64,000 bases of DNA from a virus. The notes beneath the pieces are model-generated. The model saw only the letters and a list, made by a program, of their open reading frames with translations. It was not told where the DNA came from and did not search any database. This document shows positions 15,387 through 35,687 of this stretch, one piece after another. Where the stretch lies: positions 1 through 64,000 of the IMG/VR virus record IMGVR_UViG_3300020183_000001; one strand, 5' to 3'. A program made the translations under genes and the position numbers. The first letter of the stretch is position 1. Every line of letters begins with the position of its first letter.

Positions 15387-15410
15387 AGTTTAACGTCATA
15401 CCCAGGACGG
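15387..15410 (-). repeat. Class A leader repeat 1
   Basis: Read leftward: CGTC, 8-nt loop CTGGGTAT, GACG, then TTAAACT. It lies just after the stop at 15415 and before the 37-aa gene. Confidence 0.75.
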
Positions 15411-15414
15411 TTAA

Positions 15415-15687
15415 TCACTCTTTGATGTTGCTTTCAAACGAATACTGACGCCGTTTAATTGCATCAGGGTTTTTTTCTTTTTGGATGACACGTGCATCCT
15501 CTGATGCAGCATACAAAACTTCCTGGAACGAATCCCAAACAAACTTAGGATCTTTTAAATAACCAGTAAATTCAAAAGCATCAAGCGTAATAACGTGTTG
15601 TCTAAGTAGTTGACAAAGCAAATCAGCTTTACTCTGGACAAGGTGTTTGAAATCTTCTTCAGGAAGATCGTAGGTATCAAGGTTCAT
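15415..15687 (-). CDS. Hypothetical protein, 90 aa
   Basis: Helical (YDLPEEDFKHLVQSKADLLC, then FVWDSFQEVLYAASEDARV). The ATG at 15687 overlaps the upstream stop by 11 nt; an upstream ATG at 15720 is less likely. Unknown function. Confidence 0.55.
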   Translation of the reverse strand: MNLDTYDLPEEDFKHLVQSKADLLCQLLRQHVITLDAFEFTGYLKDPKFVWDSFQEVLYAASEDARVIQKEKNPDAIKRRQYSFESNIKE

Positions 15688-15934
15688 TGTCAAAAGATTC
15701 CTCAGGAAGGTGTTGTTCAATAGCCGCAGTTAAGGCATCAGTAATAAACTGTTTTTGTTTTTCTTCTCCAAGGTCTGTCCACCATTGGAGATCAGCATCT
15801 GCCTCATCCCATTCAATGTGAATGGTACCAGAACCATCTTCTTCTTCAATGAATGTGCATTGAAGTTTAAAGACGGTGTCAGGATTCATACCTGAGACAC
15901 AGAGTTCTGCTCTGTAGTCTTGTTTGTTTTCCAT
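15677..15934 (-). CDS. Hypothetical protein, 85 aa
   Basis: Beta-rich N-terminal half (YRAELCVSGMNPDTVFKLQC), with IHIEWDEADADLQWW in the middle and an acidic helix at the end. No family is recognised. It overlaps both neighbours (49 nt with the SWIM-finger gene). Confidence 0.6.
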   Translation of the reverse strand: MENKQDYRAELCVSGMNPDTVFKLQCTFIEEEDGSGTIHIEWDEADADLQWWTDLGEEKQKQFITDALTAAIEQHLPEESFDNEP

Positions 15935-16872
15935 GCATTTGCTAGCTGAGGTAATGCAAGTCCTGGGAAAGGAACAAAGCCGTTATCTAACATGTTATCA
16001 AAAAGATTCCATGCATCGTGTTGTGTGAATACCTCCTTTGGTTTGTAGGTTTTCCATGCAGGCAGTGGGGCCATTGACCCATGTTTGGTATACAGAACCA
16101 AGAAACGACCCTTATCTAATTTACCTTCTGGTGGCGCGTACCACCAAGCAGTAGCATCTTGAGCTGTTGCACCACGACCTGCACTACGTACTTCACCACG
16201 CTTAACGAGGAGTTGTCTGTAGCGTTTGATCCAGGTCAGATGAATACACCAAGGTTTGTAATCACTAATCTCAGCCTGGAACTCAGACAGATTATTTAGT
16301 TGTCGCTGGAAAGATCCGCAAGAGCAGTACGGTGCTTTCTCATATTCTTTGTTGCTACTAACCTCAGCAGTCTCACCATCTTCACCTGCATCAAAATAAG
16401 ATTCCTCAACAACATGGAAGCCGTCAGGGGCAACCAGATGTCCAAGGTCAAGCTGATCACTTTGTAATAGTGTCTCAAGCTTAATCCGATCTTGTATGTG
16501 AATGAACTTATCCGCCCACGAACGTTGAGCTTGCGCTGCAGGCGAGAGGTGCCCAAGTGCGTGGCTGTAGTGCCAACCTTTGAAGAGTACGTATGCATTG
16601 TGACGCCAAATGGATGGACCACGGAAGTTAGGACCTAGGTAAGAGAAAAAATCTTTTAGTCGAAATGTAAACTGCTGGTACGCAGCCTTAATCATTTCCC
16701 TGTCATAAGTTTGCTCAGTACCATCGTTACGCACCACGATAGCAGAATTATCTCGCAAATAAATTGCGGAGATTTCCGTGTCATCAAATTCCGGAAACGC
16801 ACGTCTGATATTGCTACGGGTGTAAATAATTTGTTGAGCTTGGTTGAGTTGAGTAATAAGTTCGGTTGTCAT
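15886..16872 (-). CDS. SWIM zinc-finger protein
   Basis: A 328 aa protein with a SWIM-type motif: Cys183-x-Cys185 (YCSCGSFQ) and Cys209-x-His211 (WCIHLTW). SWIM fingers bind DNA or proteins, and in phages their role is unknown. The start at 16872 is chosen because the AACTCAAC-type leader ends just before it; the ATG at 16905 sits inside a CCTGA/TCAGG hairpin, like other leaders here. Aromatic-rich regions around residues 70-105 and 255-300 suggest further globular parts. Confidence 0.7.
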   Translation of the reverse strand: MTTELITQLNQAQQIIYTRSNIRRAFPEFDDTEISAIYLRDNSAIVVRNDGTEQTYDREMIKAAYQQFTFRLKDFFSYLGPNFRGPSIWRHNAYVLFKGWHYSHALGHLSPAAQAQRSWADKFIHIQDRIKLETLLQSDQLDLGHLVAPDGFHVVEESYFDAGEDGETAEVSSNKEYEKAPYCSCGSFQRQLNNLSEFQAEISDYKPWCIHLTWIKRYRQLLVKRGEVRSAGRGATAQDATAWWYAPPEGKLDKGRFLVLYTKHGSMAPLPAWKTYKPKEVFTQHDAWNLFDNMLDNGFVPFPGLALPQLANAWKTNKTTEQNSVSQV

Positions 16873-16907
16873 GGTCGAGTTGAGTTTGTGTTGATTTCCT
16901 GACATGC

Positions 16908-17078
16908 TCAGGATTTGGATTTAAACTTTTCAGCCTGGTACACACTGGTAGTAATTTTGTATGTACCCCAGACTGCTGTGGCAAGGGCGACGGGCGTGCC
17001 AATCATAGCAGCTAATCCACCAGTAATCAGACCAGTTGCAATCCCTGTAACAAATGCAACTTTTTCTTCGTGTTTCAT
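16908..17078 (-). CDS. Small membrane protein, 56 aa
   Basis: Two hydrophobic stretches (VAFVTGIATGLITGGLAAMIG and PVALATAVWGTYKI) between charged ends; the first is Gly-rich. It resembles small phage membrane peptides; a holin-like role is possible but unproven. First gene of its leftward unit, divergent from the 17122 gene. Confidence 0.55.
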   Translation of the reverse strand: MKHEEKVAFVTGIATGLITGGLAAMIGTPVALATAVWGTYKITTSVYQAEKFKSKS

Positions 17079-17121
17079 TTAATTAATGTGAGTAGAATTA
17101 ATTATCTTCAAATAGAAACTT

Positions 17122-17376
17122 ATGGAAGAAGTTTACATTCCCCTACATAAGTTTGATATAGAACCATCGATTGATGATTTGTTTTGGGAAGAGAAAATTA
17201 AACGGTCAATTCAAGAGTGTAACTCCGTAAGTACATTGAAAGAAATGGCTACCCTCTTGGCGAGGATAGCCACACAACGCCAAGGAATAATTAAAGGGTT
17301 GGTCAAAGACATTAACATTTTTAACAACGTGTTGATTGATGCTAATGAAATTGCCAACCCTGAAATCAAACCTTAA
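17122..17376 (+). CDS. Lone rightward gene, 84 aa
   Basis: Helical and charged (WEEKIKRSIQECNSVSTL, then MATLLARIATQRQGIIKGL). The only + strand gene in the 12.8-36.5 kb leftward region. AT-rich sequence just upstream can serve as a promoter. It converges on the 17373 gene with a 4-nt overlap. Inserted or regulatory gene is possible. Confidence 0.55.
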   Translation: MEEVYIPLHKFDIEPSIDDLFWEEKIKRSIQECNSVSTLKEMATLLARIATQRQGIIKGLVKDINIFNNVLIDANEIANPEIKP

Positions 17377-18470
17377 AACGAATAGTTTTCACCAGTGTCA
17401 GGATCTTGTGCAGATGCAAGAGCTTTTACTTCTACATCCACAGCCCTGGACACTGGAAGAATCTCTACTCCCTGCTTGATTCCGTAAGCACCACCAAGTT
17501 TTTCAGCATCTTGTTTTGCATGCTGGTTGATGTAGTCATCAAACATCTCTTGGTACTTCCAAGTTGATTCACGATCTTCATCGGGAATACTGAGGCGATG
17601 CAGTGAACTCATTGCTTCATCTTGAGTGTTGTATTCTGGAATCTCAAAGGATTCAATTGCGCAAATCTCAACGTTGTTGGCACCGCGCATCTCATTAGCA
17701 AGCACTGGTACAAACACTGTGGTTGCATAAAACTTTTCGTTGAATGCAAGCGGCACTTCAGAGTCCAGTGCTTTACTCAAACACTTGGACATCTCACGTT
17801 CGTACATCTTGATCTTATCGCTCGCATCCGTGCCATTAAGTCCCTTCAAGGTAAGAACCATAGGGATCTTGTGTGCACGTTTGTTATCCTGGGTCAGGAT
17901 ATAAACCAGATACTTGGTACGTACACTGTACTTACGACGGTACATCTCACCCTTGCTGTTAGCAAGATCAGATGCAACCTTGTCTGCATCCCAAAGTTCT
18001 TTGACCTCAGGGTTATCAAACGTACCAATCGTTTGCCTCATCCCTGAAGTTTCTTCCACCATAAGCGGGGAACGCAAAAGGATTTGAATTCGAGGCTCAG
18101 TGAAATTGAGTCCCTCTTCAATTGAAGTGTTGGGAGCCATACCGAAAGTTTGCTTGTAGTTCCAAATGACTGAACCTTTAGCAAACTGATCTTCAGTGGC
18201 GTTCCATCCGCAAGTGTCAAGATCTGTGTTCCGCACAAACCAACCTCGTGTCTTGGACTTGTTAAGAGGCTGGATCGTGACGAGGTTTTGATACCCCGAA
18301 ACAAATTCTTTAGATTGAAAAAGCTTGAACGAGTCAAGGCTCCTGGTAGCAAGCGCAGATGTTTTCTTAGTAGTCATAACTTTGGTCGGAAGTTTTTCGG
18401 TAGTAGTTTCTTTGGTGGGTTCTTCAGCAGGGTCAGGTTTTCTTAGTAGGTCAAGGACTGATTCAGTCAT
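17373..18470 (-). CDS. DUF5895-like protein, 365 aa
   Basis: Blocks such as RGWFVRNTDLDTCGW and EPRIQILLRSPLMVEETSG recall the cyanobacterial DUF5895 family, whose function is unknown; the match is from memory of the pattern. It lies between the replication genes and just downstream of SSB, so a role in DNA metabolism is a fair guess. The first 45 residues are Thr/Lys/Pro-rich and probably disordered. A class A repeat sits in its leader. Confidence 0.6.
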   Translation of the reverse strand: MTESVLDLLRKPDPAEEPTKETTTEKLPTKVMTTKKTSALATRSLDSFKLFQSKEFVSGYQNLVTIQPLNKSKTRGWFVRNTDLDTCGWNATEDQFAKGSVIWNYKQTFGMAPNTSIEEGLNFTEPRIQILLRSPLMVEETSGMRQTIGTFDNPEVKELWDADKVASDLANSKGEMYRRKYSVRTKYLVYILTQDNKRAHKIPMVLTLKGLNGTDASDKIKMYEREMSKCLSKALDSEVPLAFNEKFYATTVFVPVLANEMRGANNVEICAIESFEIPEYNTQDEAMSSLHRLSIPDEDRESTWKYQEMFDDYINQHAKQDAEKLGGAYGIKQGVEILPVSRAVDVEVKALASAQDPDTGENYSF

Positions 18471-18495
18471 TGGATTGTTGAGTTGGTGGATGGGA

Positions 18496-18519
18496 AGTTT
18501 AACGTCGTACCCAGGACGT
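18496..18519 (-). repeat. Class A leader repeat 2
   Basis: ACGTC, loop CTGGGTAC, GACGT, then TAAACT: the best-paired member (5 bp). Between the stop at 18523 and the start at 18470. Confidence 0.75.
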
Positions 18520-18522
18520 ATC

Positions 18523-18789
18523 TCACTTTAGACCAAGGTCAAGGTTTGGAGCTGGAAGATTAAACTTCCTTAACAGTTCATTGTTGCGGCGTTCTTCCAT
18601 ATCAAAATATTCTTCTGATACAGAAGACATGTGCTCATAAATTGCTTTGTCGTAATGACCGCATCCACGAAGAAAACAAATGAATGAATCAATAATTTCA
18701 CCAACAAACATTGCGTTAACAGTGTTTGTTATTGTGGTGTTATCATCAACATGTTTGAATTCAAAGTGGTTAAACTGTTTTTCAGTCAT
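18523..18789 (-). CDS. Hypothetical protein, 88 aa
   Basis: Mixed alpha/beta, with MFVGEIIDSFICFLRGCGHYD in the middle and DMEERRNNELLRKFNLP near the end. No family is recognised. It starts 3 nt after the SSB stop. Confidence 0.6.
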   Translation of the reverse strand: MTEKQFNHFEFKHVDDNTTITNTVNAMFVGEIIDSFICFLRGCGHYDKAIYEHMSSVSEEYFDMEERRNNELLRKFNLPAPNLDLGLK

Positions 18790-18791
18790 GA

Positions 18792-19607
18792 TCAGAAAGG
18801 AGGTTCTCCATCGTCATCGGTAACTGAAGCCATTGCGTAACCAGGAAGATCAGGAAGGCTGGTACCAGTCTGCGCACCCCAAGGTTCAGCAAGATCTTCA
18901 GCAACCTTTCCACCCCACAGGCTAGCTACTCCTGAGCCAGAAGCAACGGTTGTTTGCGGTTGAATTGGTTTGGCTTCATTGTTTCCTTTAGGTGCCAAGG
19001 TCATTGACACCAACTGAATCTTGGTAGCAACCTTCTTCTCTTTGGTTTCTTTATCTGTCCAGGCATCTGTTACCAGTCTCCCCTGGATCGTAAGCCCCAC
19101 ACCTTTACGTGTAAAGTTAACAAGAAGTTCAGCATAGTTTAACTTATCTTCTGCAGCGTTAATTGCATAGAAGTTAAACAGATCTGATTGATTACGACCT
19201 GTATTAACACCAAGGGTTTGATTACAGATCATCAACCCATCGGCCGTAGTTTTGAATGCACGTGCATCATCTTGATCGATGTCCTTAACACAGCGTCCGC
19301 TGAGAACAACTGTATTGAGGATTGGGAATGATGCGTCAACTTGCGCAACAATTCCTCCATGTAAGGAATACGTTTTCGTATCGAGATCATATCGAAGCTT
19401 GGCGCCGTGAATGTAGATCTGTGCACCGGCTGGAATACGGGCAAATCGTTCAGCAGCTTTACCATAAACATTTAGTTGAATTGGGGTTGGAGCTTTGTTA
19501 CCTACTGGAGGCAACAACACATTACATACGGTTGCAAAAGAGCTTTCGCTAATTGCTTTTTCTTTAGGAGCTTCGGCAGTTTGTGCACAAAGGAATGAAA
19601 GATTCAT
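18792..19607 (-). CDS. ssb: Single-stranded DNA-binding protein
   Basis: Protects ssDNA and recruits partners during replication. 271 aa, longer than typical SSB, with two OB-fold-like halves: residues about 25-95 (IQLNVYGKAAERFARIPAG) and about 98-200 (VVLSGRCVKDIDQDDARAF, then KGVGLTIQGRLVTDAW). The last residues are DDDGEPPF, the acidic-aromatic tip by which bacterial SSB docks other proteins. The ATG at 19607 is chosen because the longer frame runs through a class A leader repeat. Confidence 0.85.
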   Translation of the reverse strand: MNLSFLCAQTAEAPKEKAISESSFATVCNVLLPPVGNKAPTPIQLNVYGKAAERFARIPAGAQIYIHGAKLRYDLDTKTYSLHGGIVAQVDASFPILNTVVLSGRCVKDIDQDDARAFKTTADGLMICNQTLGVNTGRNQSDLFNFYAINAAEDKLNYAELLVNFTRKGVGLTIQGRLVTDAWTDKETKEKKVATKIQLVSMTLAPKGNNEAKPIQPQTTVASGSGVASLWGGKVAEDLAEPWGAQTGTSLPDLPGYAMASVTDDDGEPPF

Positions 19608-19632
19608 GAGATCAAACAGTTGGTGGTAAGGC

Positions 19633-19656
19633 AGTTTAACGTCATACCTGGGACGG
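19633..19656 (-). repeat. Class A leader repeat 3
   Basis: CGTC, loop CCAGGTAT, GACG, then TTAAACT. It lies 26 nt before the SSB start. Confidence 0.75.
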
Positions 19657-19661
19657 AACAA

Positions 19662-19808
19662 TTAAAATTCTTTTTTTATCTCATCTAAATACTCTACATA
19701 CTTTTCAAAAAGAGCACCATCATTTCTTAATGATGAATCAAAATGAGAATGAAAAAAGAAAGTTGCAATTTCATGCAGTTGTTTTGCAGTAGCTTTCCAA
19801 TCAGTCAT
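19662..19808 (-). CDS. Small hypothetical protein, 48 aa
   Basis: Begins MTDWKATAKQLHEIATFFF and ends VEYLDEIKKEF; two helices. It starts 1 nt after the polymerase stop, a coupled arrangement. Unknown function. Confidence 0.55.
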   Translation of the reverse strand: MTDWKATAKQLHEIATFFFHSHFDSSLRNDGALFEKYVEYLDEIKKEF

Positions 19809-19809
19809 G

Positions 19810-22695: not shown

Positions 22696-22721
22696 GGTTG
22701 TGTTGAGTTGAGTGAACAAGC

Positions 22722-22743
22722 AGTTTAATGTCGTGCTCAGGAC
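22722..22743 (-). repeat. Class A leader repeat 4
   Basis: GTC, loop CTGAGCAC, GAC, then ATTAAACT; the arms carry a coordinated change (TGTC/GACA instead of CGTC/GACG), which favours selection on pairing. Confidence 0.75.
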
Positions 22744-22761
22744 AAATCAATTGTTTGTAAC

Positions 22762-26039: not shown

Positions 26040-26537
26040 TCAAACGTTTTTCCAAGTAACTCCCCTGTGGATAAATTGAATACACATATAAGTAACACCA
26101 TAAACGCCAGCAATTTCTTTATATGCTTGATAACAAGATGGATAAGTAGCCATAAACTTTGGATCGTAAAGCATTGTTTTAATTTCCATAACTTGTGATC
26201 GAGTAAGTTTAGATGTAAATGGTTTTAGGTTTTGATTTCTATTTTTTATATATTTCTTGGGTTCTTCTCTTGGAAGTTTTGTAATCTTTGGTTCAATACG
26301 TTGTTCAATTTGCCGACCATCTTCTGTATAATCAATGCGTACAACAGTAGGTTTACTAACTTTTGGTTTGGTTACAACAGGAGCTTGTTCTACTTTTTTA
26401 ATTACTTTGGTTGTACTGGTTGGCAACTTAATTGATTGCTCAATTCCATTGTCATCAGTAACAGAGATGTGGAAATAGTTATCTGTTTTAAATACAGATA
26501 CTTGTTGTGGCTTGGTGTAAGTAACAATAGGTTGCAT
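26040..26537 (-). CDS. Basic protein with C-terminal HTH-like segment, 165 aa
   Basis: Residues 1-105 are a beta-rich, then Lys/Pro-rich linker. The last 55 residues (LTRSQVMEIKTMLYDPKF, SCYQAYKEIAGVYGVTYMCI) resemble the HTH end of the 24795 product and of phage HNH/regulator proteins. Probable DNA-binding protein. The ATG at 26537 is required because a longer ORF would run into the tRNA at 26558. Confidence 0.6.
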   Translation of the reverse strand: MQPIVTYTKPQQVSVFKTDNYFHISVTDDNGIEQSIKLPTSTTKVIKKVEQAPVVTKPKVSKPTVVRIDYTEDGRQIEQRIEPKITKLPREEPKKYIKNRNQNLKPFTSKLTRSQVMEIKTMLYDPKFMATYPSCYQAYKEIAGVYGVTYMCIQFIHRGVTWKNV

Positions 26538-26557
26538 GATTTTAATAGCAAATGGAT

Positions 26558-26633
26558 TGGTACCTGAGGTGAGATTTGAACTCACGCTGGAACGATTTTA
26601 AGTCGTTTGCCTCTTCCGCTGGGCTACTCAGGC
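26558..26633 (-). tRNA. tRNA with UAA anticodon (nominally Leu), short variable loop
   Basis: A full 76-nt cloverleaf with encoded CCA (26558-26560). Acceptor GCCTGAG/CTCAGGT, D stem GCC/GGC, anticodon stem AACGA/TCGTT with loop CTTAAAA (anticodon at 26598-26600), T arm GTGAG/CTCAC with loop TTCAAAT. The variable loop is only CCAGC, a class I form, whereas bacterial tRNA-Leu has a long class II arm. Its first 10 nt overlap the end of the 26624-26839 gene. Charging identity is therefore uncertain. Confidence 0.85.
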
Positions 26634-26890: not shown

Positions 26891-28648
26891 CTAAGCAGAT
26901 GCTAGCGCAGACTCACGTTGCGTCAACGCCTTGCTGAATGCAGTTGTGTACAACTCACGTTCCTCATCCGTAAGCCTGGCGTTGCTAATACCAGCGATCT
27001 GTTTAACGGACATCATACCCATGTTGACTTCCAATTGGATTGTGAACATGGGTTTGCTATCAATCATGCACAGCACAATGAAGTGCTTCTTCTTACGAAC
27101 ACCATCTGCATAACCACTGGCACTACCGACGCAATTACGTACGGCTTGTCCCCATGCAGCTAGTTGATGGGTATCAACTGGTTGGAAAAATGTCCACCTA
27201 CTGGAACCAAGTTCAAGCTTGACTGGTTCTGGGAACAAATCCTGGGGTAGTGATTCGTTTTTGTTCTTGACCTTCCATGCAACAGACTGAACGTGATCAT
27301 GGAACTCCATGAGACGCCAACGTTTTGGAACATCAAGAGTTAGTGGTTCCGTTGCACATGCATTGTGTGCAAGGATTGTATCTAGCATTGATACCGTATC
27401 ACTCCAGTTGGAATAATAAAAACGTGGACACTGTAGATCTGAGTCATAATAGTAACGAGTGTGCGTATTGTTTATTTCTCGTTCATATTCTTTTTCAAGA
27501 ATAGAAAAGAATGAAGCAACAGGCATGTGTTTGTTCAACCATGCTTGTGTAATAATTGTACCTTGACGTGTTGATTTAAAACTTAACAGTTGAACAATGT
27601 AAGTTTGATAGTAATCAATGGGACACTCAGGCCATACGTCATACACAAAAGCAATAGCATTAAATAGTACATGGATCTGAGCCCATGGTCCACGGATACA
27701 CCTAAGATATTGATTACTAGTATCGTTAAACATTGCATTGACTTGATCACATCTTGCTTGAATCCATTTCTTAAAGAACGGAGTAGCAATAATGTGCAGC
27801 ATCTTGTTTAGTTGCCTATAGATATCACCGTCATATCCACTGTCGTGTGCATAATGAGTGATAAGTTTGAACAACAAGTCATATGAGATTACAGCTTTGG
27901 TAATGTCATGTTGTTGCCAGAATGTTCTACATTCTTGACCATAATGATAACCATTAGTGAAGATAACAGAAGCTGGATTGATTGCCCGGAGCCGAGCAAA
28001 AGTTGATTGACTGTCAGACCACATAGGGATTGTGTTAAACAGTTGATCTTCAAATGCTTTTACTTGTTGGCACAGATTACCAGACTTTTTGTAGTAAGCT
28101 TGAGCACCTGGGATGTTCCAGTTCTTTGCATCGTAACCATCAATAATATCTTGTCTGGTTACTAGTTTGTTGAATGTAAAATACTGAACGCGGCCAAGCT
28201 GATATGTAGATAGTTTGTTTGGATTGTCAACGTATAAGTGCTTACGAACTCTATGTGGCAGCATCTTGTGTGCAGATGCGTTGTCTTTGAATGCAAACGA
28301 GTATCCATAAATGTACTGATCTTTTTGATGCTTAGGTGGTAGCCATGCTGCATACCACACTTGCTCAAAGTGATACAAGATTGCATACGGAGTTACTGCA
28401 CCTTCAACAATTCGTGTAAACAGTTGGTAACGATCAGGTGCAGCCTGCAAATTAATATTGTCAATAGCATCGTTATATAACGATACTGGCAATACTTCAG
28501 TTGGAATCAGTTGGTTGGGTTTACCCAGTGGGTGTGCAGCTTTCTTAGTCTTGTTGTTAATTGTTTTCTGTTGTTTAGCCAGTGCTTTAAGAGCTGGGTC
28601 ATACGCCAACAACTCTTGTTGTAGTTGAGTAGGAAGACGGAATTGCAT
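26891..28648 (-). CDS. PcfJ-like protein, 585 aa
   Basis: The C-terminal 100 residues carry the PcfJ pattern: AAWGQAVRNCVGSASGYADG, then HFIVLCMIDSKPMFTIQLEV and QIAGISNARL. PcfJ-like proteins occur on plasmids and phages; their function is not established. The remaining 480 residues are helical and aromatic-rich and resemble nothing I know. The ATG at 28648 is chosen because the class A repeat and A/C-rich leader lie just upstream. It is the largest protein in the leftward region after the polymerase. Confidence 0.75.
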   Translation of the reverse strand: MQFRLPTQLQQELLAYDPALKALAKQQKTINNKTKKAAHPLGKPNQLIPTEVLPVSLYNDAIDNINLQAAPDRYQLFTRIVEGAVTPYAILYHFEQVWYAAWLPPKHQKDQYIYGYSFAFKDNASAHKMLPHRVRKHLYVDNPNKLSTYQLGRVQYFTFNKLVTRQDIIDGYDAKNWNIPGAQAYYKKSGNLCQQVKAFEDQLFNTIPMWSDSQSTFARLRAINPASVIFTNGYHYGQECRTFWQQHDITKAVISYDLLFKLITHYAHDSGYDGDIYRQLNKMLHIIATPFFKKWIQARCDQVNAMFNDTSNQYLRCIRGPWAQIHVLFNAIAFVYDVWPECPIDYYQTYIVQLLSFKSTRQGTIITQAWLNKHMPVASFFSILEKEYEREINNTHTRYYYDSDLQCPRFYYSNWSDTVSMLDTILAHNACATEPLTLDVPKRWRLMEFHDHVQSVAWKVKNKNESLPQDLFPEPVKLELGSSRWTFFQPVDTHQLAAWGQAVRNCVGSASGYADGVRKKKHFIVLCMIDSKPMFTIQLEVNMGMMSVKQIAGISNARLTDEERELYTTAFSKALTQRESALASA

Positions 28649-28680
28649 GGTGAGTTCGTAGTGAGTGTGTGGTGTTGAGC

Positions 28681-28703
28681 AGTTTAACGTCATGCTCAGG
28701 ACG
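28681..28703 (-). repeat. Class A leader repeat 5
   Basis: CGTC, loop CTGAGCAT, GACG, then TTAAACT, in the leader of the PcfJ-like gene. Confidence 0.75.
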
Positions 28704-29435: not shown

Positions 29436-29466
29436 AGTTAAGTTGTTGTTGGGGTTGAAGTTGATG

Positions 29467-29505
29467 CTGGGACTTACACCACGTACTTATGTAGGTGATG
29501 CCCAG
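29467..29505 (-). repeat. Class B leader hairpin 2
   Basis: CTGGGCAT, CACC...GGTG inner stem, TGTAAGTCCCAG; the longest-paired copy. It follows the stop at 29510. Confidence 0.75.
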
Positions 29506-29509
29506 TGTT

Positions 29510-29770: not shown

Positions 29771-29775
29771 GATCT

Positions 29776-30190: not shown

Positions 30191-30513
30191 CACCAGTCTC
30201 CACAAGTAAATGTTTGAGTAACAACAAATGAAAGAGCAAAGGTCTCCTCTTCAATCTCGTCTTCTTCTGCTGGATAGTAACGAGCTTCGAATCCGCCAGT
30301 GCCTACCGATCGATCATTAATAGATCGATACAAAAGATTCCGACATGAACGCTTCATACGTTCAATGGTTGGAACAGTTAAGCTACCGTCTTCCATAACG
30401 TTAGCCCACTTCCAATCAAGTGCAGTCATTGCAATTTGGACTTTCTCAAAGTTAAAACGTTCGAGAAGGTCTTCAATAAGTTGGGATTGATGTTCAGTGA
30501 TTGTGAATGTCAT
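30190..30513 (-). CDS. Hypothetical protein, 107 aa
   Basis: Starts MTFTITEHQSQLIEDLLERF; the middle has TIERMKRSCRNLLYRSIND and a short acidic stretch. Unknown function. It starts 5 nt after the 25-aa gene stop. Confidence 0.6.
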   Translation of the reverse strand: MTFTITEHQSQLIEDLLERFNFEKVQIAMTALDWKWANVMEDGSLTVPTIERMKRSCRNLLYRSINDRSVGTGGFEARYYPAEEDEIEEETFALSFVVTQTFTCGDW

Positions 30514-30518
30514 TGCAG

Positions 30519-30596
30519 TTATTCAAACATTTTGATAAAGAGAATTGTGCCACATATAAAAAATGTGCACAATACTAATGCATCAGGCCAGCTCAT
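30519..30596 (-). CDS. Membrane micro-peptide, 25 aa
   Basis: ALVLCTFFICGTILFIKMF forms a single transmembrane helix. It is kept because the ATG overlaps the preceding stop (ATGA) and the stop lies 5 nt before the next start, leaving no spare sequence. Confidence 0.45.
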   Translation of the reverse strand: MSWPDALVLCTFFICGTILFIKMFE

Positions 30597-30874
30597 GGTT
30601 TGTTGTAAATAGTTCCGTTGCGTTTGTAAAGATCAAACCCATGCATAGTCTTTGTGTCAAGTGTAGTGTAAGGACCAATGTTGGCACAGCCAATTAAGTA
30701 GTAGAACTTAAAGAAGCCTGGGTGTTCATCCCACTCTTCATCAGTACACATAAGTTTAGATCCAACACCAAACGTATTCTTACGTTGGGTAGTCCATATG
30801 TCACCTGGCTGAGCAGGCAGGTGACGTGTCTTAGATTGAGTCTTAGGTTGAGTCTTTGGTTTAGTTGTAGTCAC
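30593..30874 (-). CDS. Hypothetical protein, 93 aa
   Basis: Thr/Lys/Pro-rich basic first 20 residues, then an aromatic core (EHPGFFKFYYLIGCANIGPY). Overlaps both neighbours by 4 nt. Confidence 0.6.
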   Translation of the reverse strand: MTTTKPKTQPKTQSKTRHLPAQPGDIWTTQRKNTFGVGSKLMCTDEEWDEHPGFFKFYYLIGCANIGPYTTLDTKTMHGFDLYKRNGTIYNKP

Positions 30875-31089
30875 TGCAGATCTCCTGGCATGAGTGCATT
30901 GGTGTCTTCATCAGACATATTGGACATAACAAATTTGTTTCCATCGGCGTCTACAAAGCCGCCGACAAAACCAATACCATGTCGATCAGCAGATTCTTTC
31001 ATCTTTGCAACGATTGACATAGCTTGCAACCGTTGGTTATCAATGGCATCAGGGATGCGTGGTTTGGGTGCGTCGTTAAGTGCAGTCAT
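30871..31089 (-). CDS. Hypothetical protein, 72 aa
   Basis: Contains AMSIVAKMKESADRHGIGFVG and a Gly/Asp-rich end. No family is recognised. Preceded by a class B hairpin and an unusual long structured leader. Confidence 0.6.
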   Translation of the reverse strand: MTALNDAPKPRIPDAIDNQRLQAMSIVAKMKESADRHGIGFVGGFVDADGNKFVMSNMSDEDTNALMPGDLQ

Positions 31090-31115
31090 GGTGAGTTAAG
31101 TGTGTAGTAGTTGAG

Positions 31116-31160
31116 CAAGCTGGGACTTACACGCCTTCTGTCAGAGCGATGCCCAGCTTG
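31116..31160 (-). repeat. Class B leader hairpin 3
   Basis: CAAGCTGGG/CCCAGCTTG, a 9-bp base, with inner CGC/GCG and the conserved TGTAAGT side. Confidence 0.75.
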
Positions 31161-31165
31161 TGTTT

Positions 31166-31242
31166 ATAAGCTTACCACCCTCTGTCAAGGGTGACCACCC
31201 CGTTCATGAGTGGGAGCGTGCATATTTGGGGTGAAAGCTTAT
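31166..31242 (-). promoter_or_regulatory. Second structured leader element
   Basis: ATAAGCTT/AAGCTTAT close a 77-nt domain with inner ACCCC/GGGGT pairing and a small ACCC/GGGT hairpin. Located between the HNH gene stop and class B hairpin 3. No coding potential. Confidence 0.5.
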
Positions 31243-31269
31243 TGAGAATTTAAATAAATGTTTAATTTA

Positions 31270-31641
31270 TTAATTAGCTTTTGTTAATTCAAATGTATTT
31301 AAGTTATTGTTCATTGTTTTAAAACCCCATTTTCTACGGTTAGTATTTTGTTCAGATTTTATTGCCCATTTTAAATTATTTGGATTATTGTTAGATGGAC
31401 AATTATCAATGTGATCAATAGTCATAGATAATTTGTATTCATTAAAAGTTAAAACATACACTATTAAATGTACTGGATATTGTTTACCTTTATATGTAAC
31501 ACGCCAATATCCATGTGAAGTTAAACAACCTGCAACGTTGTTTGCTTTAACACGATTAGTAATTGATATTTTCCATCTTAAAAAAGATGGAGAAGTTTCA
31601 TCTACATAAAACAAATTTTTAAATAAGGTTAAATTGTTCAT
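31270..31641 (-). CDS. HNH homing-type endonuclease, 123 aa
   Basis: The pattern YWRVTYKGKQYPVHLIVYVL, then MTIDHIDNCPSNNNPNNLKW and SEQNTNRR is that of HNH_3/homing nucleases; His in IDHID is catalytic in the family. Its DNA is visibly more AT-rich than its neighbours, which suggests recent arrival. The ATG at 31641 lies 6 nt after the previous stop. Confidence 0.8.
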   Translation of the reverse strand: MNNLTLFKNLFYVDETSPSFLRWKISITNRVKANNVAGCLTSHGYWRVTYKGKQYPVHLIVYVLTFNEYKLSMTIDHIDNCPSNNNPNNLKWAIKSEQNTNRRKWGFKTMNNNLNTFELTKAN

Positions 31642-31646
31642 TGCAG

Positions 31647-31970
31647 TTACCGATGCATTTCTTGGTGTTCTTTCCATGCAGCAGTGTGCATTTCATCCAT
31701 AGTTATCGGTGGTTCACCAACCCATTCATCTGGTTCATCAGGCCATTCGATAGCTTGCTCAAGTTGACCAATGGCTTCTAACAGATATTCTTCGTAATGA
31801 TACGGAAGATCATTGTATCCCAAGGGACGATTCTGTTCCCGTTGGTAGATAGCCATAAGTTCTTCGATGATCAGCGTGATGCGCATGTCATCGTTGAGCT
31901 GGTAGGTATGTGTACTACCATCATGACGGGTGTACGTGTTGCTGGTGAATTGAAGTTGATGTTTAGCCAT
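31647..31970 (-). CDS. Acidic hypothetical protein, 107 aa
   Basis: Begins MAKHQLQFTSNTYTRHDGST; the second half is helical and acidic with many Trp/Pro (IEWPDEPDEWVGEPPITMDE). Unknown function. Confidence 0.6.
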   Translation of the reverse strand: MAKHQLQFTSNTYTRHDGSTHTYQLNDDMRITLIIEELMAIYQREQNRPLGYNDLPYHYEEYLLEAIGQLEQAIEWPDEPDEWVGEPPITMDEMHTAAWKEHQEMHR

Positions 31971-31997
31971 GGTGTGTTTGTTGATAGTTGATTTGAT

Positions 31998-32038
31998 GCT
32001 GGGACTTACATCACGTACTTATGTAGTAAATGCCCAGC
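31998..32038 (-). repeat. Class B leader hairpin 4
   Basis: CTGGGCAT, a variable apical part with ACATAAGTACGT (as in copy 2), TGTAAGTCCCAG. Confidence 0.75.
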
Positions 32039-32055
32039 TTGTAGTATTAGTACTA

Positions 32056-32082
32056 TTGCCAATACATGGATAGTATTGGCAA
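32056..32082 (-). promoter_or_regulatory. Strong intergenic hairpin
   Basis: TTGCCAATAC and GTATTGGCAA form a perfect 10-bp stem with a 7-nt loop. No T-run follows leftward, so it is more likely a processing or stability element than a terminator. Confidence 0.55.
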
Positions 32083-32103
32083 GTTTTATGTGCGCTTCAA
32101 TAC

Positions 32104-32385
32104 TTAGATTAAGCCAAGGATTGAGAGCCAACTGTTGGGGTCGTCGGGTTCGACCTCGTCCTCCTCTGGCGTGAAACAGACTGAGTCGAAGACCCACTCT
32201 TCAATTTCTTCGAGCGTGGGGACGGGGTACCACTCACGTTTCCAGAAGATGTGCGGCCAACCGTCTCTGATTTCAACGTCGTGGAAGCAGAGTGTGGTGT
32301 CGGCTGGCTCTTGTCCCTCTTCGTTGGTGAGTGGGGTGTAACCGACGATTGCAGCAATGTCGTGTTGGATGGGTTGGAGGGCCAT
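32104..32385 (-). CDS. Acidic hypothetical protein, 93 aa
   Basis: Trp-rich, acidic (DGWPHIFWKREWYPVPTLEE, then CFTPEEDEVEPDDPNSW). No family is recognised. Its leader holds the 32436 hairpin and an A/C-rich stretch. Confidence 0.6.
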   Translation of the reverse strand: MALQPIQHDIAAIVGYTPLTNEEGQEPADTTLCFHDVEIRDGWPHIFWKREWYPVPTLEEIEEWVFDSVCFTPEEDEVEPDDPNSWLSILGLI

Positions 32386-32435
32386 AGTAGTGAGATGAAT
32401 TGAAGGAACAGTGTAGTGAGAATGGTCAGGATAAC

Positions 32436-32459
32436 GATGATGTGTAGTATTACATCATC
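32436..32459 (-). promoter_or_regulatory. Leader hairpin
   Basis: GATGATGT/ACATCATC, perfect 8-bp stem with 8-nt loop, between the stop at 32482 and the start at 32385. Confidence 0.5.
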
Positions 32460-32481
32460 ATTATATTGTTGAGGCTGAGTG

Positions 32482-32619
32482 TTAGTCATCAGTTAGTTCA
32501 TCAGTTGGGTTAGGTGGTTGCATCTCTTCTTGCATAGCTTGTTCCTGCTGGTACGCAAGGTCAGACCATGCGTCAAGAAGATCTGCATTGTAGTTCTCAT
32601 CGAGTTGTTGAGTTGTCAT
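32482..32619 (-). CDS. Small acidic protein, 45 aa
   Basis: MTTQQLDENYNADLLDAW, then Gln/Glu-rich. Preceded by class A repeat 6; no Shine-Dalgarno. Confidence 0.5.
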   Translation of the reverse strand: MTTQQLDENYNADLLDAWSDLAYQQEQAMQEEMQPPNPTDELTDD

Positions 32620-32642
32620 CGAATGAGTTGATAAAGGACTGA

Positions 32643-32666
32643 GCAGTTTAACGTCATACTCAGGAC
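32643..32666 (-). repeat. Class A leader repeat 6
   Basis: CGTC, loop CTGAGTAT, GACG, then TTAAACT. A separate palindrome, ATAAACG-A-CGTTTAT (32682-32696), lies 16 nt upstream and could be an operator. Confidence 0.75.
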
Positions 32667-32716
32667 GGATATCAAGAATATGAATAAACGACGTTTATCA
32701 GAATTCCAAGTAATAG

Positions 32717-33100
32717 CTAGTCAAATGGTTTAAAATCTGTATCTTTCAAGAGAGAGTCAATGTGTGCAACATCGCATTCTCTCATGTATTCACTTAAGTT
32801 TTCTGATGGATCAATCTCATAGTCATCAGTTTGATTCTCAACAACTTCGCATCCAATGTCTTCGAGTTGATCAACGTAGTTATCCCAGCTATTGGCATTG
32901 CCATAGACATGGGCATAACGCCCGGTCTGGTCAACGACAAGTGCTACATAAGTCATGGGTTGAGCCTCAGGTAGTGTGAAGGGTCTTTGTTCTGCAGCCA
33001 TTAACTTTGCAGTAATGGCACGCAAATCGTGCCTAGATAGTTCTCCATTTGGTCTCCACTTCAACGCGGTATTTGCAAATGTTGTAGTAGGTAAGACCAT
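32717..33100 (-). CDS. Hypothetical protein, 127 aa
   Basis: Starts MVLPTTTFANTALKWRPNGE; the second half is acidic (DIGCEVVENQTDDYEIDPSE). The longer ORF overlaps the next gene upstream, so the ATG at 33100 is used. Confidence 0.6.
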   Translation of the reverse strand: MVLPTTTFANTALKWRPNGELSRHDLRAITAKLMAAEQRPFTLPEAQPMTYVALVVDQTGRYAHVYGNANSWDNYVDQLEDIGCEVVENQTDDYEIDPSENLSEYMRECDVAHIDSLLKDTDFKPFD

Positions 33101-33125
33101 TGGAATAACAGATAGGTTAATTAGT

Positions 33126-33344
33126 TTACCGTGGTTCGACCAAGGTTTGTTGGCATGACCACTGTAGTAAAGACTTTGTAAAGTCGGTACCAAGCATAGC
33201 GCCTGTTACGACAAAAGCGATACCGATAACAATGGTTGCAGATAAAAAGTTACAAAGGTAACGTCCTGCTCTACTGCTGTGGTACTCAGGGTACACATCA
33301 GTGTGAATAAATTGTTTAGGTCCAAGTTTAGTAATCTGTTTCAT
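33126..33344 (-). CDS. Single-pass membrane protein, 72 aa
   Basis: One hydrophobic helix (FLSATIVIGIAFVVTGAMLG) after a polar N-terminus (MKQITKLGPKQFIHTDV). Unknown role. The ORF extension above 33344 reads through leader hairpins. Confidence 0.6.
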   Translation of the reverse strand: MKQITKLGPKQFIHTDVYPEYHSSRAGRYLCNFLSATIVIGIAFVVTGAMLGTDFTKSLLQWSCQQTLVEPR

Positions 33345-33503
33345 TGGAGAAAGTCCTGTGTAGTAGGAATCAACCTTCGGTTGATGGACGGAGTAATACA
33401 ACTGTACTACGTTGCAATAGGCAGGAGAGGAAGAAGATCTCCTGCAGAAAACCCACTCATCAATGATGAGCAGGGTTAAGTGCAAGAATCAGTTAGTCAA
33501 GAG
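33345..33503 (-). promoter_or_regulatory. 159-nt structured leader with class C element 1
   Basis: From right to left: CTCATC/GATGAG, then CTCCTGC/GCAGGAG (class C tandem pair, 33421-33477), then TCAACC/GGTTGA. No reading frame is convincing here. Confidence 0.55.
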
Positions 33504-33896
33504 TCAGGCCGCAGCAGTTGCAGCCTTCTTCTTACTAGCAGCCTTCGTTCCTTCCTCAGCTTTGGGCTGAGGCTTGGAACCAAAGGCATAATCAGTCACT
33601 TTCAGTTGAAACTCTGGTTGCTTGAGCGGCATGAGCTCTTCATCTTTCATATAGAAAGCACGGATGCCTTGAATTTTACCAGACACCGTGAGCTCTTGGC
33701 CTACAACCAGATTGTCATTGGTATAAGCAGTAAGCAAACCATTGCTGTTGAAGAATTTGATTGTGACCACAGCATCTTTAGAGATACGGTGGTACAAAGT
33801 AACAACCAAACAGTCACGCTCATCTTCCGTTTTGATAACGATAAGACTTGCAATGCGACCAACAACAGTAAACGTTTGCAGATCAGCGTAAGTCAT
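33504..33896 (-). CDS. Probable OB-fold protein, 130 aa
   Basis: Strand pattern FTVVGRIASLIVIKTEDERD, VTIKFFNS, LTVSGKIQGIRAF is that of an OB fold, as in single-strand-binding proteins; a Lys/Ala-rich tail ends the chain. It might bind ssDNA or RNA as a second SSB-like factor (inference). The ATG at 33896 directly follows an AACTCAACTCAA leader. Confidence 0.6.
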   Translation of the reverse strand: MTYADLQTFTVVGRIASLIVIKTEDERDCLVVTLYHRISKDAVVTIKFFNSNGLLTAYTNDNLVVGQELTVSGKIQGIRAFYMKDEELMPLKQPEFQLKVTDYAFGSKPQPKAEEGTKAASKKKAATAAA

Positions 33897-33926
33897 AAAA
33901 TTAAATTGAGTTGAGTTGATAAGCAA

Positions 33927-33966
33927 GCAGAGATGAACTCTGCAGAAACCCATCGAAATCGATGGG
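33927..33966 (-). repeat. Class C tandem hairpin 2
   Basis: CCCATCG/CGATGGG, the conserved link TTTCT, then GCAGAG/CTCTGC. It lies 31 nt before the OB-fold gene start. Confidence 0.7.
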
Positions 33967-33978
33967 AATATGCAAAGA

Positions 33979-34131
33979 TCACCAGTCGTAAACACGAATG
34001 GCTTTAAGGTTAACAGGAGAGATATCCAGTAGTTCAGCACCAGCAAGCAATGCTTCTGTTTGTGTGCGAGCCATTAGCTCAATAACAAACTCACTACTAA
34101 ACACTTTCCAAATAACCAAGGGACGTTCCAC
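33979..34131 (-). CDS. Small hypothetical protein, 50 aa
   Basis: GTG start 2 nt after the preceding stop. The sequence ERPLVIWKVFSSEFVIELMA then ALLAGAELLDIS looks like a strand-helix unit. Unknown function. Confidence 0.5.
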   Translation of the reverse strand: MERPLVIWKVFSSEFVIELMARTQTEALLAGAELLDISPVNLKAIRVYDW

Positions 34132-34133
34132 GA

Positions 34134-34376
34134 TTAGTCCACTAGATGTTCTTGTTCCCATTTAAGAAGTGCACGGTTGAGATCAACCTTCTTCTCAAGG
34201 ACAACACAGAACGGGACCAAGTCTTGGAACTGTACCAAGCCATCTTGCCATTGATAAAAGATCTCCAGTGCAGCCTGGCGCTGACTTTCAATCTCCTGAT
34301 CAATGATAGGAGTGTCTCGACGTGCAAGAAGACGAGCTTCTTGGGTAAGGAGACGTTCAACAGCTTTAGGAGTCAT
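34134..34376 (-). CDS. Hypothetical protein, 80 aa, helical
   Basis: MTPKAVERLLTQEARLLARR and ESQRQAALEIFYQWQDGLV form long helices; ends KWEQEHLVD. The leader has three ACTCA units and class C element 3. Confidence 0.6.
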   Translation of the reverse strand: MTPKAVERLLTQEARLLARRDTPIIDQEIESQRQAALEIFYQWQDGLVQFQDLVPFCVVLEKKVDLNRALLKWEQEHLVD

Positions 34377-34407
34377 AGCGAAACCAAGTGGAGTTGAGTT
34401 GAGTTGT

Positions 34408-34449
34408 GCAGATGTAAAGTCTGCAGAAACCCATCTTGTTACAGATGGG
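34408..34449 (-). repeat. Class C tandem hairpin 3
   Basis: CCCATCT/AGATGGG, the link TTTCT, then GCAGA/TCTGC. Stem bases differ from copy 2 but pairing is kept. Confidence 0.7.
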
Positions 34450-34461
34450 AATTTGTAGACA

Positions 34462-34728
34462 TCACATCATTTGTTCGATGCGTTCTTGCTCCATTGTGGT
34501 GGAATAGTCGTAATACTCTTGCATCTCCATCAGCATGTCTTTCATGCTGGTAGGAATTGAACCAAGAGTACGTACGTCGCGATCAATCCACTCTTGCCAT
34601 GTGGCACCAGTGTCTAGATCATACATGTTCCACAACTTCTCAAAGTGAAGCTGTGTAGTTTCAACGTTGTACCAAGTAACGCGATACCGTCCTTCGTCAG
34701 GACGGTAGGTAAGTGTTGGGGTAGCCAT
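34462..34728 (-). CDS. Hypothetical protein, 88 aa
   Basis: Beta-rich start (TLTYRPDEGRYRVTWYNVET), helical Met/Glu-rich end. No family is recognised. Confidence 0.6.
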   Translation of the reverse strand: MATPTLTYRPDEGRYRVTWYNVETTQLHFEKLWNMYDLDTGATWQEWIDRDVRTLGSIPTSMKDMLMEMQEYYDYSTTMEQERIEQMM

Positions 34729-34731
34729 AAG

Positions 34732-34917
34732 TCAATTAGTTTTGTAACCGTTAGAAGCACACCAATTCATATGAATTTGATGCGCAGGCTTAGGCCAGTC
34801 ATGTTGAAGGCATTGTTTAGCAGTTGCTTCGTGCAACAAACGTGCACCAATGCAACTAGCAATACCTCCACCAATAACAACGGTAGCAATGTAAATAACC
34901 AATTGATTCTTAGTCAT
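34732..34917 (-). CDS. Membrane protein, 61 aa
   Basis: N-terminal hydrophobic helix (QLVIYIATVVIGGGIASCIG) and a soluble tail with HDWPKPAHQIHMNWC. The ATG overlaps the previous stop (ATGA). Confidence 0.6.
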   Translation of the reverse strand: MTKNQLVIYIATVVIGGGIASCIGARLLHEATAKQCLQHDWPKPAHQIHMNWCASNGYKTN

Positions 34918-35090
34918 GAGTTGATGTGCAGTTGACAATCGTTAGGCATAATAAGTGCAGCCGCACGAATGCGGTATTCACTTATCTTCTGTCCAAGCTG
35001 CTGTTTAGATGGCAGCTTAGCAGTTTCTACTGCAGATGCTGTTAGTTTCAGCAATGCAGCAGTATTCTTTCGAATGTGTAGTGCAGTCAT
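34914..35090 (-). CDS. Small basic protein, 58 aa
   Basis: Begins MTALHIRKNTAALLKLTASA; helical and basic. It is supported by the ATGA coupling to the next gene and an ACTCAATTC leader. Confidence 0.5.
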   Translation of the reverse strand: MTALHIRKNTAALLKLTASAVETAKLPSKQQLGQKISEYRIRAAALIMPNDCQLHINS

Positions 35091-35107
35091 AAGTTGAATT
35101 GAGTTAA

Positions 35108-35155
35108 GCCACTCTCAGTGAGTGGCAATAGTTAGGCAGGGGTTTGCACCCTGCC
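35108..35155 (-). repeat. Class D leader hairpin 2 (TGCAAAC loop)
   Basis: GGCAGGG/CCCTGCC with loop TGCAAAC on the leftward strand, next to a second hairpin GCCACT/AGTGGC. Confidence 0.65.
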
Positions 35156-35170
35156 ACCCGCTTGTACGGA

Positions 35171-35416
35171 TTAACCGTAGTTCTCGGGAAGCTCTACAAG
35201 CTCTGCAAGAACTTGGTGTTGCAGCTCGCGTTCGCCAGCAATCTTCAGTCCCCATGCGGCAATCTGAAGAGCTTGCTCACGGCTTAGTAGCTGCGAGTGG
35301 CCTGACTCCATCCAAAACTGGATGAGATCGTAGGCCGTAGCCGCTAGTTCTTCCCTGGTAGGAAGTACAGCAGCAGTAGTGTTGGTCACGGTATTCTCCG
35401 TGTGTGCGGTACCCAT
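35171..35416 (-). CDS. Hypothetical protein, 81 aa
   Basis: Helical (REELAATAYDLIQFWMESGH, ALQIAAWGLKIAGERELQHQ). The ATG at 35416 has GGAG just upstream, and the context GCGGAGATGGGTACCGCA nearly recurs at the next gene. Confidence 0.6.
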   Translation of the reverse strand: MGTAHTENTVTNTTAAVLPTREELAATAYDLIQFWMESGHSQLLSREQALQIAAWGLKIAGERELQHQVLAELVELPENYG

Positions 35417-35437
35417 CTCCGCTGAGGGTAATAACTG

Positions 35438-35458
35438 GGACAGGGTTTGCACCTGTCC
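35438..35458 (-). repeat. Class D leader hairpin 3 (TGCAAAC loop)
   Basis: GGACAGG/CCTGTCC around TGCAAAC, between the stop at 35474 and the start at 35416. Confidence 0.65.
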
Positions 35459-35473
35459 TCCCGCTTTAACGGA

Positions 35474-35641
35474 TCAGTTAAGAGACCTAAACTTAATTAA
35501 AGCCTCACGAATTGCTTCTTGTACCCAGTGCTTTGGTACTGGATACAGCTGCCATTGCTTCCACGTCTCAAAAACAAGACGCCGTTCGACAGCTGAAAGA
35601 TGTTTGTAGCTCACAGGAATCTCCTGTTGTGCGGTACCCAT
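35474..35641 (-). CDS. Small hypothetical protein, 55 aa
   Basis: MGTAQQEIPVSYKHLSAVE then RRLVFETWKQWQLYPVPKHW, helical. The first codons and leader repeat those of the 35416 gene (MGTA), a sign of duplication. Class A repeat 7 lies in its leader. Confidence 0.55.
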   Translation of the reverse strand: MGTAQQEIPVSYKHLSAVERRLVFETWKQWQLYPVPKHWVQEAIREALIKFRSLN

Positions 35642-35662
35642 TTCCGCTGGGGGTAATGCTAC

Positions 35663-35687
35663 GGTTTAACGTCCATCAGCTAGACGT
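35663..35687 (-). repeat. Class A leader repeat 7 (divergent)
   Basis: ACGTC, a longer loop, GACGT, then TAAACC. Position and the TTAAAC end agree with the other copies. Confidence 0.6.

What the first reader, a model, noticed from the sequence alone, without database searches (positions are those of the whole stretch)
15387..35687. Class A leader repeat: CGTC-N8-GACG followed by TTAAACT, seven copies
Seen directly at 15387, 18496, 19633, 22722, 28681, 32643 and 35663. Each copy lies between a stop and the next leftward start, 15-50 nt before the ATG, and ahead of genes as different as SSB, GP88, PcfJ and micro-peptides. The loop is also conserved (CTGRGYAY), and copy 4 keeps pairing with changed bases. 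Two readings: an RNA hairpin for processing or translation, or a DNA inverted repeat bound by a phage activator next to a TAAACT -10 box (a middle promoter family). The position and spacing are fixed enough to suggest a real regulon.
Basis: partly seen in the sequence, partly recalled or inferred. Interest (0 to 1): 0.78.

Follow-up and report, generated by a model that had tools for sequence, protein, structure and literature searches.

The report
Phage pseudoknot between gene ends
The repeat is half of a tiny, strongly conserved knotted RNA fold of 27 bases that viruses of many different bacteria place just after the end of one gene and before the next gene or tRNA; it is absent from the RNA family database, and it most likely caps and protects messenger RNA ends.

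Summary
Six of the seven copies are real and alike. Each is a 27-nt RNA pseudoknot: stem 1 CGUC/GACG, loop CU, stem 2 (for example GAGC/GCUC), AU, then UUAAACU. The bases right after TTAAACT pair with the "conserved loop". The seventh copy (35663) belongs to another repeat.

Both stems covary strongly when left free in the search, while the loops stay fixed. I collected 657 copies from viral contigs; the main subtype scores 0 on reversed sequence. Named phages with a clear copy infect Synechococcus, Nostoc, Roseobacter, Mycobacterium, Arthrobacter, Lactobacillus and Staphylococcus. Rfam has no match. One S1 class, searched in 84,980 bacterial genomes, gave one spurious hit.

Position is strand-specific. 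Stem 1 starts at least 5 nt after a stop codon (sharp peak at 5). The knot lies at least about 18-20 nt before the next AUG, or 3-14 nt before a tRNA (23 cases, 0.2 expected). S-EIV1 keeps it in five equivalent gaps.

Best explanation: an intercistronic mRNA element that stays folded between terminating and initiating ribosomes and blocks 3' exonucleases at ends made by cleavage downstream (inferred). The DNA-operator/promoter reading is rejected.

The parts
15383..15409 (-). Pseudoknot copy 1: CGTC CT GGGT AT GACG TTAAACT ACCT; 5 nt after the stop of the ORF ending at 15415, 23 nt before the ATG at 15359 of a 37-aa peptide
   Evidence: equivalent gap in S-EIV1 has AGTC CT GAGC AT GACT TTAAACT ACTC
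18492..18518 (-). Pseudoknot copy 2: CGTC CT GGGT AC GACG TTAAACT TCCC (three clean stem-2 pairs); 4 nt after the stop of the 88-aa ORF, 21 nt before the ATG of the DUF5895 gene
   Evidence: S-EIV1 equivalent CGTC CT CGGC AA GACG TAAAACT GCCC
19629..19655 (-). Pseudoknot copy 3: CGTC CC AGGT AT GACG TTAAACT GCCT; 6 nt after the stop of a 48-aa ORF, 21 nt before the ATG of the SSB gene
   Evidence: S-EIV1 equivalent has AAGC/GCTT as stem 2
22718..22744 (-). Pseudoknot copy 4: TGTC CT GAGC AC GACA TTAAACT GCTT; 17 nt after the thymidylate synthase (Thy1) stop, 22 nt before the ATG of the GP88 gene; stem 1 changed on both sides
28677..28703 (-). Pseudoknot copy 5: CGTC CT GAGC AT GACG TTAAACT GCTC; 5 nt after the stop of a 66-aa ORF, 28 nt before the ATG at 28648 of the PcfJ-like gene (the ATG at 28693 lies inside the knot)
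   Evidence: S-EIV1 equivalent TGTC CT GAGT AT GACA TTAAAGT GCTC
32641..32667 (-). Pseudoknot copy 6: CGTC CT GAGT AT GACG TTAAACT GCTC; 49 nt after the stop at 32717, 21 nt before the ATG at 32619 of a 45-aa ORF
   Evidence: the same site is found in contig L031
35656..35686 (-).

Best explanation
Shown: the element is a minimal H-type RNA pseudoknot (stem 1, 4 bp; loop 1 CY; stem 2, 4 bp; loop 2 AN; loop 3 NNAAACU or NNAAAAG; then a G-poor tail of about 8 nt), shared by phages of many bacterial phyla and set between cistrons on the coding strand. It keeps at least 5 nt from the upstream stop codon and at least about 18-20 nt from the next AUG, or sits 3-14 nt before a tRNA. Inferred: those distances keep the knot outside both a terminating and an initiating ribosome, so it stays folded while both genes are translated. 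A cut in the unstructured tail or linker (RNase E or Y), or RNase P cutting at the tRNA, would leave the upstream message with a 3' end a few bases after the knot. The knot, compact and probably stabilised by loop 3 packing on stem 1, would then block 3'-to-5' exonucleases and stabilise the upstream cistron. It would need no phage protein, which would explain its use in unrelated hosts.
For: Stem 2 left free (stem 1 and TTAAACT fixed): 116 of 147 sites form all four pairs, slid controls 0-3; covariation 0.322 against 0.164 +/- 0.013 in shuffles, 0 of 500. Stem 1 left free: 135 of 166 form all four pairs with 48 stem-1 combinations; covariation 0.451 against 0.138. Loops left free: CT in 81 of 110, A first in loop 2 in 94, loop 3 mostly NNAAACT or NNAAAAG. 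511 AAACT-type copies with 0 in reversed sequence, 146 AAAAG-type with 4. Stop-to-knot gap peaks at exactly 5 nt with almost nothing below (58 at 5, 34 at 6, about 6 below). Knot-to-ATG edge near 18-20 nt. Reading frame of the next ATG relative to the stop is not preserved (16/26/28), so not readthrough. Strand-specific. tRNA 3-14 nt downstream in 23 copies (0.2 expected), against 2 tRNAs upstream (16 and 59 nt away); 20 of the 23 also have a gene stop 5-18 nt upstream. The DUF932 gene family carries the knot after its stop whether a tRNA, another gene or a long gap follows. Neighbouring genes are otherwise unrelated. 3' exonucleases remove upstream fragments after endonuclease cleavage in E. 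coli and B. subtilis (PMC3997798).
Against: No RNA decay or 3'-end data were available, so the nuclease step is inference. In S-EIV1-like phages the same downstream gene families (PcfJ, GP88) keep the knot with seven different upstream families each, and with long upstream gaps the knot stays near the next ATG; both also fit a 5' leader role. Sixteen of the 23 tRNA cases are tRNA-Asp, nearly all behind the same DUF932 gene, so they are not independent. The strict loop conservation could also mean a bound protein.
Confidence: 0.42

Rival explanations
1. 5' leader element: the pseudoknot acts on the downstream gene, as a translational operator bound by a protein (as T4 gp32 binds its own leader), as a ribosome or S1 recruiting site, or as a cap protecting the 5' end of a processed message.
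For: Knot-to-ATG distance is tight in the window (21-28 nt) and in S-EIV1-like phages; PcfJ and GP88 families keep the knot behind different upstream genes; it precedes SSB and capsid scaffold genes; T4 gene 32 has a leader pseudoknot (PMC3014915).
Against: In 23 copies what follows is a tRNA, not a coding region; the DUF932 family keeps the knot after its end whatever follows; downstream genes are unrelated; stem 2 does not overlap a Shine-Dalgarno site; one phage-encoded binder is hard to imagine in Staphylococcus, Mycobacterium and Synechococcus phages alike.
Confidence: 0.25
2. Ribosome boundary: the knot is a mechanical barrier at the mRNA entry of the terminating ribosome. It stops post-termination ribosomes from sliding or reinitiating, or sharpens termination, and so insulates neighbouring cistrons and tRNAs.
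For: A 5-nt spacer to the stop codon equals the 5-9 nt spacer of frameshift-stimulating pseudoknots, which wedge at the mRNA entry channel (PMC7618472); the fold resembles those of luteoviral frameshift signals; it also precedes tRNAs, where ribosome entry would disturb folding.
Against: The gap distribution is a sharp lower edge with a long tail (many copies at 7-60 nt or more), which looks like packing rather than a functional distance; no preference for one stop codon.
Confidence: 0.17
3. DNA operator: inverted repeat CGTC-N8-GACG bound by a phage activator next to a TTAAACT -10 box (middle promoter).
For: Palindromic half sites and a T/A-rich heptamer; six copies in one genome.
Against: Half-site sequence is free if paired (48 combinations) and differs among copies in one contig; the second pairing and G-U pairs need RNA; strand-specific position after stop codons; no -10-like enrichment upstream; present in phages of unrelated hosts.
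Confidence: 0.03
4. Co-transcriptional element: the nascent pseudoknot binds RNA polymerase and makes it resist pausing or termination between genes (as the put RNAs of phage HK022 do), or is a small ligand-binding or self-cleaving RNA.
For: Short structured RNA with conserved loops and free stems, in phages of many hosts.
Against: No Rfam riboswitch or ribozyme match; no terminator enrichment downstream or upstream (5 and 3 of 455, random 5); no expression platform; position tied to gene ends, not promoters.
Confidence: 0.08

Closest known systems
T4/T2/RB69 gene 32 leader pseudoknot (PMC3014915)
   Same: H-type pseudoknot in a phage message; one window copy lies upstream of an SSB gene
   Different: The T4 one lies 67 nt upstream of the start and serves one gene; here unrelated genes and tRNAs follow, stems and loops differ, and it is shared across phages of many phyla
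Luteovirus-type (BWYV) minimal frameshift pseudoknot (PMC7618472; loop details from my knowledge)
   Same: Very short stems, 2-nt loop 1 starting with C, A-rich 7-nt loop 3 likely packing on stem 1; about 5 nt from the ribosomal A-site codon
   Different: No slippery site; the codon upstream is a stop; the next gene's frame is not preserved
STAXI motif (Weinberg 2010, PMC2864571)
   Same: Pseudoknot repeats near SSB and DNA-handling genes
   Different: STAXI occurs as tandem repeats and often has UUCG tetraloops; no Rfam STAXI match here
Intercistronic stabilising hairpins: enterobacterial REP elements and CUUCGG hairpins of T4 (from my knowledge)
   Same: Compact RNA fold between cistrons, soon after a stop codon, across unrelated genes
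   Different: Those are hairpins; this is a sequence-conserved pseudoknot seen in phages
Pistol self-cleaving ribozyme (from my knowledge)
   Same: Stem, pseudoknot and a UUAAA-type segment in a similar order
   Different: No further stems or cleavage site; no Rfam match

Membership tests
H-type RNA pseudoknot | Two stems, the second formed by the hairpin loop and the downstream strand, both supported by covariation | tested here: met
Any Rfam 15 family (riboswitches, ribozymes, STAXI, manA, wcaG, PhotoRC and others) | Score at or above the family threshold | tested here: not met
   No family at any element, gathering or relaxed thresholds:
T4 gene 32-type autogenous operator | Leader of the SSB gene bound by its own product | tested here: inconclusive
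   One of six window copies precedes an SSB gene; in other phages other genes and tRNAs follow; binding not testable here
Programmed frameshift or readthrough signal | Recoding joins upstream and downstream frames | tested here: not met
   Stop-to-ATG distance modulo 3 is 16/26/28 for gaps 5-6
Programmed frameshift or readthrough signal | Stimulating structure 5-9 nt after the A-site codon | tested here: met
   Gap peak at 5-6 nt, with a long tail
Intercistronic 3' exonuclease barrier | Compact structure near the 3' end of a cistron | tested here: met
Intercistronic 3' exonuclease barrier | Blocks PNPase or RNase R and stabilises the upstream message | not testable with these tools
   needs decay assays
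Activator-dependent middle promoter | Fixed DNA half-site sequence beside a -10 box, no RNA pairing | tested here: not met
Intrinsic terminator | GC-rich hairpin followed by a U run | tested here: not met
   No terminator enrichment at the elements

The most novel reading that the evidence does not exclude
A phage-wide RNA family: phages of Cyanobacteria, Proteobacteria, Actinobacteria, Firmicutes and Bacteroidota use one 27-nt pseudoknot as a universal, host-factor-independent cap that separates cistrons and tRNAs on polycistronic messages, keeping cleaved messages alive in infected cells.
Probability: 0.35. Interest if true: 0.88.

Novelty: new variant of a known kind. Interest (0 to 1): 0.76.

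Why it matters
Only one phage pseudoknot with a regulatory role was noted in the T4 review read here (gene 32, PMC3014915). A second family, common in metagenomic phages, found in phages of several bacterial phyla and missing from Rfam, would be a basic feature of phage messages that annotation overlooks. Its fixed distances from stop codon, start codon and tRNA give direct, testable predictions about how phages keep long polycistronic messages functional, and it could serve as a small genetic part for insulating genes.

Tried and rejected
Rfam at gathering and relaxed thresholds on the window, on cyanophage loci, on loci outside that group and on named phages: nothing at the element.

Hairpin-only folding: stem 1 alone gives -2.3 kcal/mol, not exceptional; the nested-structure folder cannot see the pseudoknot.

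Readthrough or frameshift fusion: rejected by random frame.

Promoter reading: no -10-like enrichment upstream.

Terminator link: 5 downstream and 3 upstream of 455, against 5 at random.

Extension of stem 2 by U(loop 1)-A(27): A follows in 298 of 431 with U but 8 of 24 with C; G does not replace it, so suggestive only. Extension of stem 1 outward: 159 observed against 190 expected, rejected.

Bacterial host element: one genome-contig hit (Armatimonadetes MAG), whose stem 2 does not pair; E. coli genomes none, plasmids one weak hit.

E. coli phage flopper, Vibrio phage D456 and Synechococcus S-CRM01 matches looked partial or lay on the opposite strand to the nearest annotated gene, and are not counted on.

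Full report
OBSERVATION. The window lies in an 82,633-base virus record whose nearest named relative is Synechococcus phage S-EIV1. Six minus-strand sites carry CGTC/TGTC-N8-GACG/GACA-TTAAACT. I treat it as a different element.

WHAT IT IS. Lining up the hits showed that the four bases after TTAAACT complement the middle of the "loop": GGAC/GTCC, GAGC/GCTC, AAGC/GCTT, GGTC/GACC. This is an H-type pseudoknot. A descriptor scan of the first 1.14 Mb found 193 hits against 12 in reversed sequence, and also found stem 1 replaced by other pairs.

I then tested each part with the others fixed. With stem 1 and TTAAACT fixed, 116 of 147 sites form all four stem-2 pairs, and slid partners give 0-3. With stem 2 and TAAACT fixed, 135 of 166 form all four stem-1 pairs, 48 combinations in all. 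The tool's own controls agree: covariation 0.322 against 0.164 +/- 0.013 (stem 2) and 0.451 against 0.138 +/- 0.015 (stem 1), 0 of 500 shuffles each; rows are related, so the shuffle count is not a probability. With both stems fixed and loops free, loop 1 is CT in 81 of 110, loop 2 starts with A in 94, and loop 3 is mostly NNAAACT, with a second form NNAAAAG. In all loci fetched, the AAACT form gives 511 copies with 0 in reversed sequence and the AAAAG form 146 with 4. These loci were fetched by overlapping patterns and several come from the same contig, so counts are of sites, not independent events.

DISTRIBUTION. Named phages with a clear copy include S-EIV1 and S-H35 (Synechococcus), NMeng1 (Nostoc), SIO1, Lentibacter and Celeribacter cobaviruses and Paracoccus ParMal1, Molivia (Arthrobacter) and Labelle (Mycobacterium), phig1e and phiEF-1.1 (Lactobacillus), D6E, MTATph1 (Moorella), staphylococcal phages, and a crAss-like phage. 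The bacterial-genome scan, limited to stem 1 of the type NGTC/GACN, gave one hit whose stem 2 fails. Rfam has no match. Literature searches of the held library found no description; most subscription papers are not held.

POSITION. Gene ends within 60 nt upstream are on the element's strand 281 times, on the other strand 29. The gap from stop codon to stem 1 has a hard edge: 58 at 5 nt, 34 at 6, about 6 below 5, then a long tail. The gap from the knot to the next ATG has an edge near 18-20 nt (the ORF calls are naive). In the window the six ATGs are 21-28 nt away. The next reading frame is random relative to the stop. The first 8-9 bases after the knot are G-poor (4-9% against 23%), whether or not an ATG is near. 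Counting the stop codon as the A-site codon, a 5-nt gap puts stem 1 just outside the ribosomal mRNA entry, the spacing of frameshift pseudoknots (5-9 nt; PMC7618472).

NEIGHBOURS. Genes on both sides are varied: SSB, PcfJ, GP88, DUF5895, Thy1, ribonucleotide reductase, polymerase A, Hsp20, DUF932, head, scaffold and endonuclease genes. S-EIV1 keeps the knot in five equivalent gaps, several with changes on both sides of a pair. In 23 copies a tRNA starts 3-14 nt after the knot (0.2 expected); 20 of these also have a gene stop 5-18 nt before it. Sixteen are tRNA-Asp, nearly all behind the DUF932 gene; the others are Arg, Gly, Gln, Ser and Trp. Molivia (SSB, knot, tRNA-Gly) and NMeng1 (knot, tRNA-like gene) add named examples.

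MECHANISM. A knot between a stop codon and a tRNA cannot be a translation leader. RNase P cutting at the tRNA would leave the upstream message ending a few bases after the knot. The same geometry with an unstructured linker before the next gene would serve RNase E or Y. Upstream cleavage products are normally destroyed by 3' exonucleases (PMC3997798), so a knot at the new end is a natural cap. This is inference from position. The 5' leader model keeps real support in the S-EIV1 group, where PcfJ and GP88 keep the knot behind seven different upstream families each, and one element may serve both sides. Stem-1 sequence differing among copies in one contig, pairing with G-U, and strand dependence exclude a DNA operator.

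VERDICT.

Noticed in passing
window 35656-35720, minus strand: Second repeat class: CAAGGGATCTCAGCGATT then CGTC-TA-GCTG-ATG-GACG-TTAAACCG-TAGC. Relatives CGTC-RA-GCTG-GACG-TTAAACG-YAGC gave 100 viral loci, often followed by AGACAACTCGGCGGTCGGTCACGACCTTGGCATCC; possibly a larger noncoding RNA.
   Followed up: partly
window 15246-15359, minus strand: 37-aa membrane-like peptide MFETLLGIVVPVLKDILWAACGAMLAYLMNKLTNHFA; small genes starting ATGTTTGAA follow the pseudoknot in many related phages, S-EIV1 included.
   Followed up: no
window 10159-10195, plus strand, with a doubtful tRNA call at 10200-10271: Rfam match to abiF RNA (RF03085, 53 bits), the RNA of an abortive-infection system, inside a phage.
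   Followed up: no
window 26558-26633, minus strand: tRNA-Leu (TAA) whose span overlaps the start of an ORF called at 26040-26585.
   Followed up: no
L226 5443-5632, plus strand: Three pseudoknots in a row in one noncoding gap, of both the AAACU and AAAAG forms; L146 also has a second, altered copy about 75 nt after the first.
   Followed up: no
L215, L219, L226, L455, L489 and others: Recurrent unit DUF932 gene, pseudoknot, tRNA-Asp in many viral contigs.
   Followed up: partly
L134 about 1465-1500 and L132 about 1460-1500: Terminator-like hairpin with U run just upstream of the knot before scaffold genes in phages D6E and phiEF-1.1, unlike most copies.
   Followed up: no
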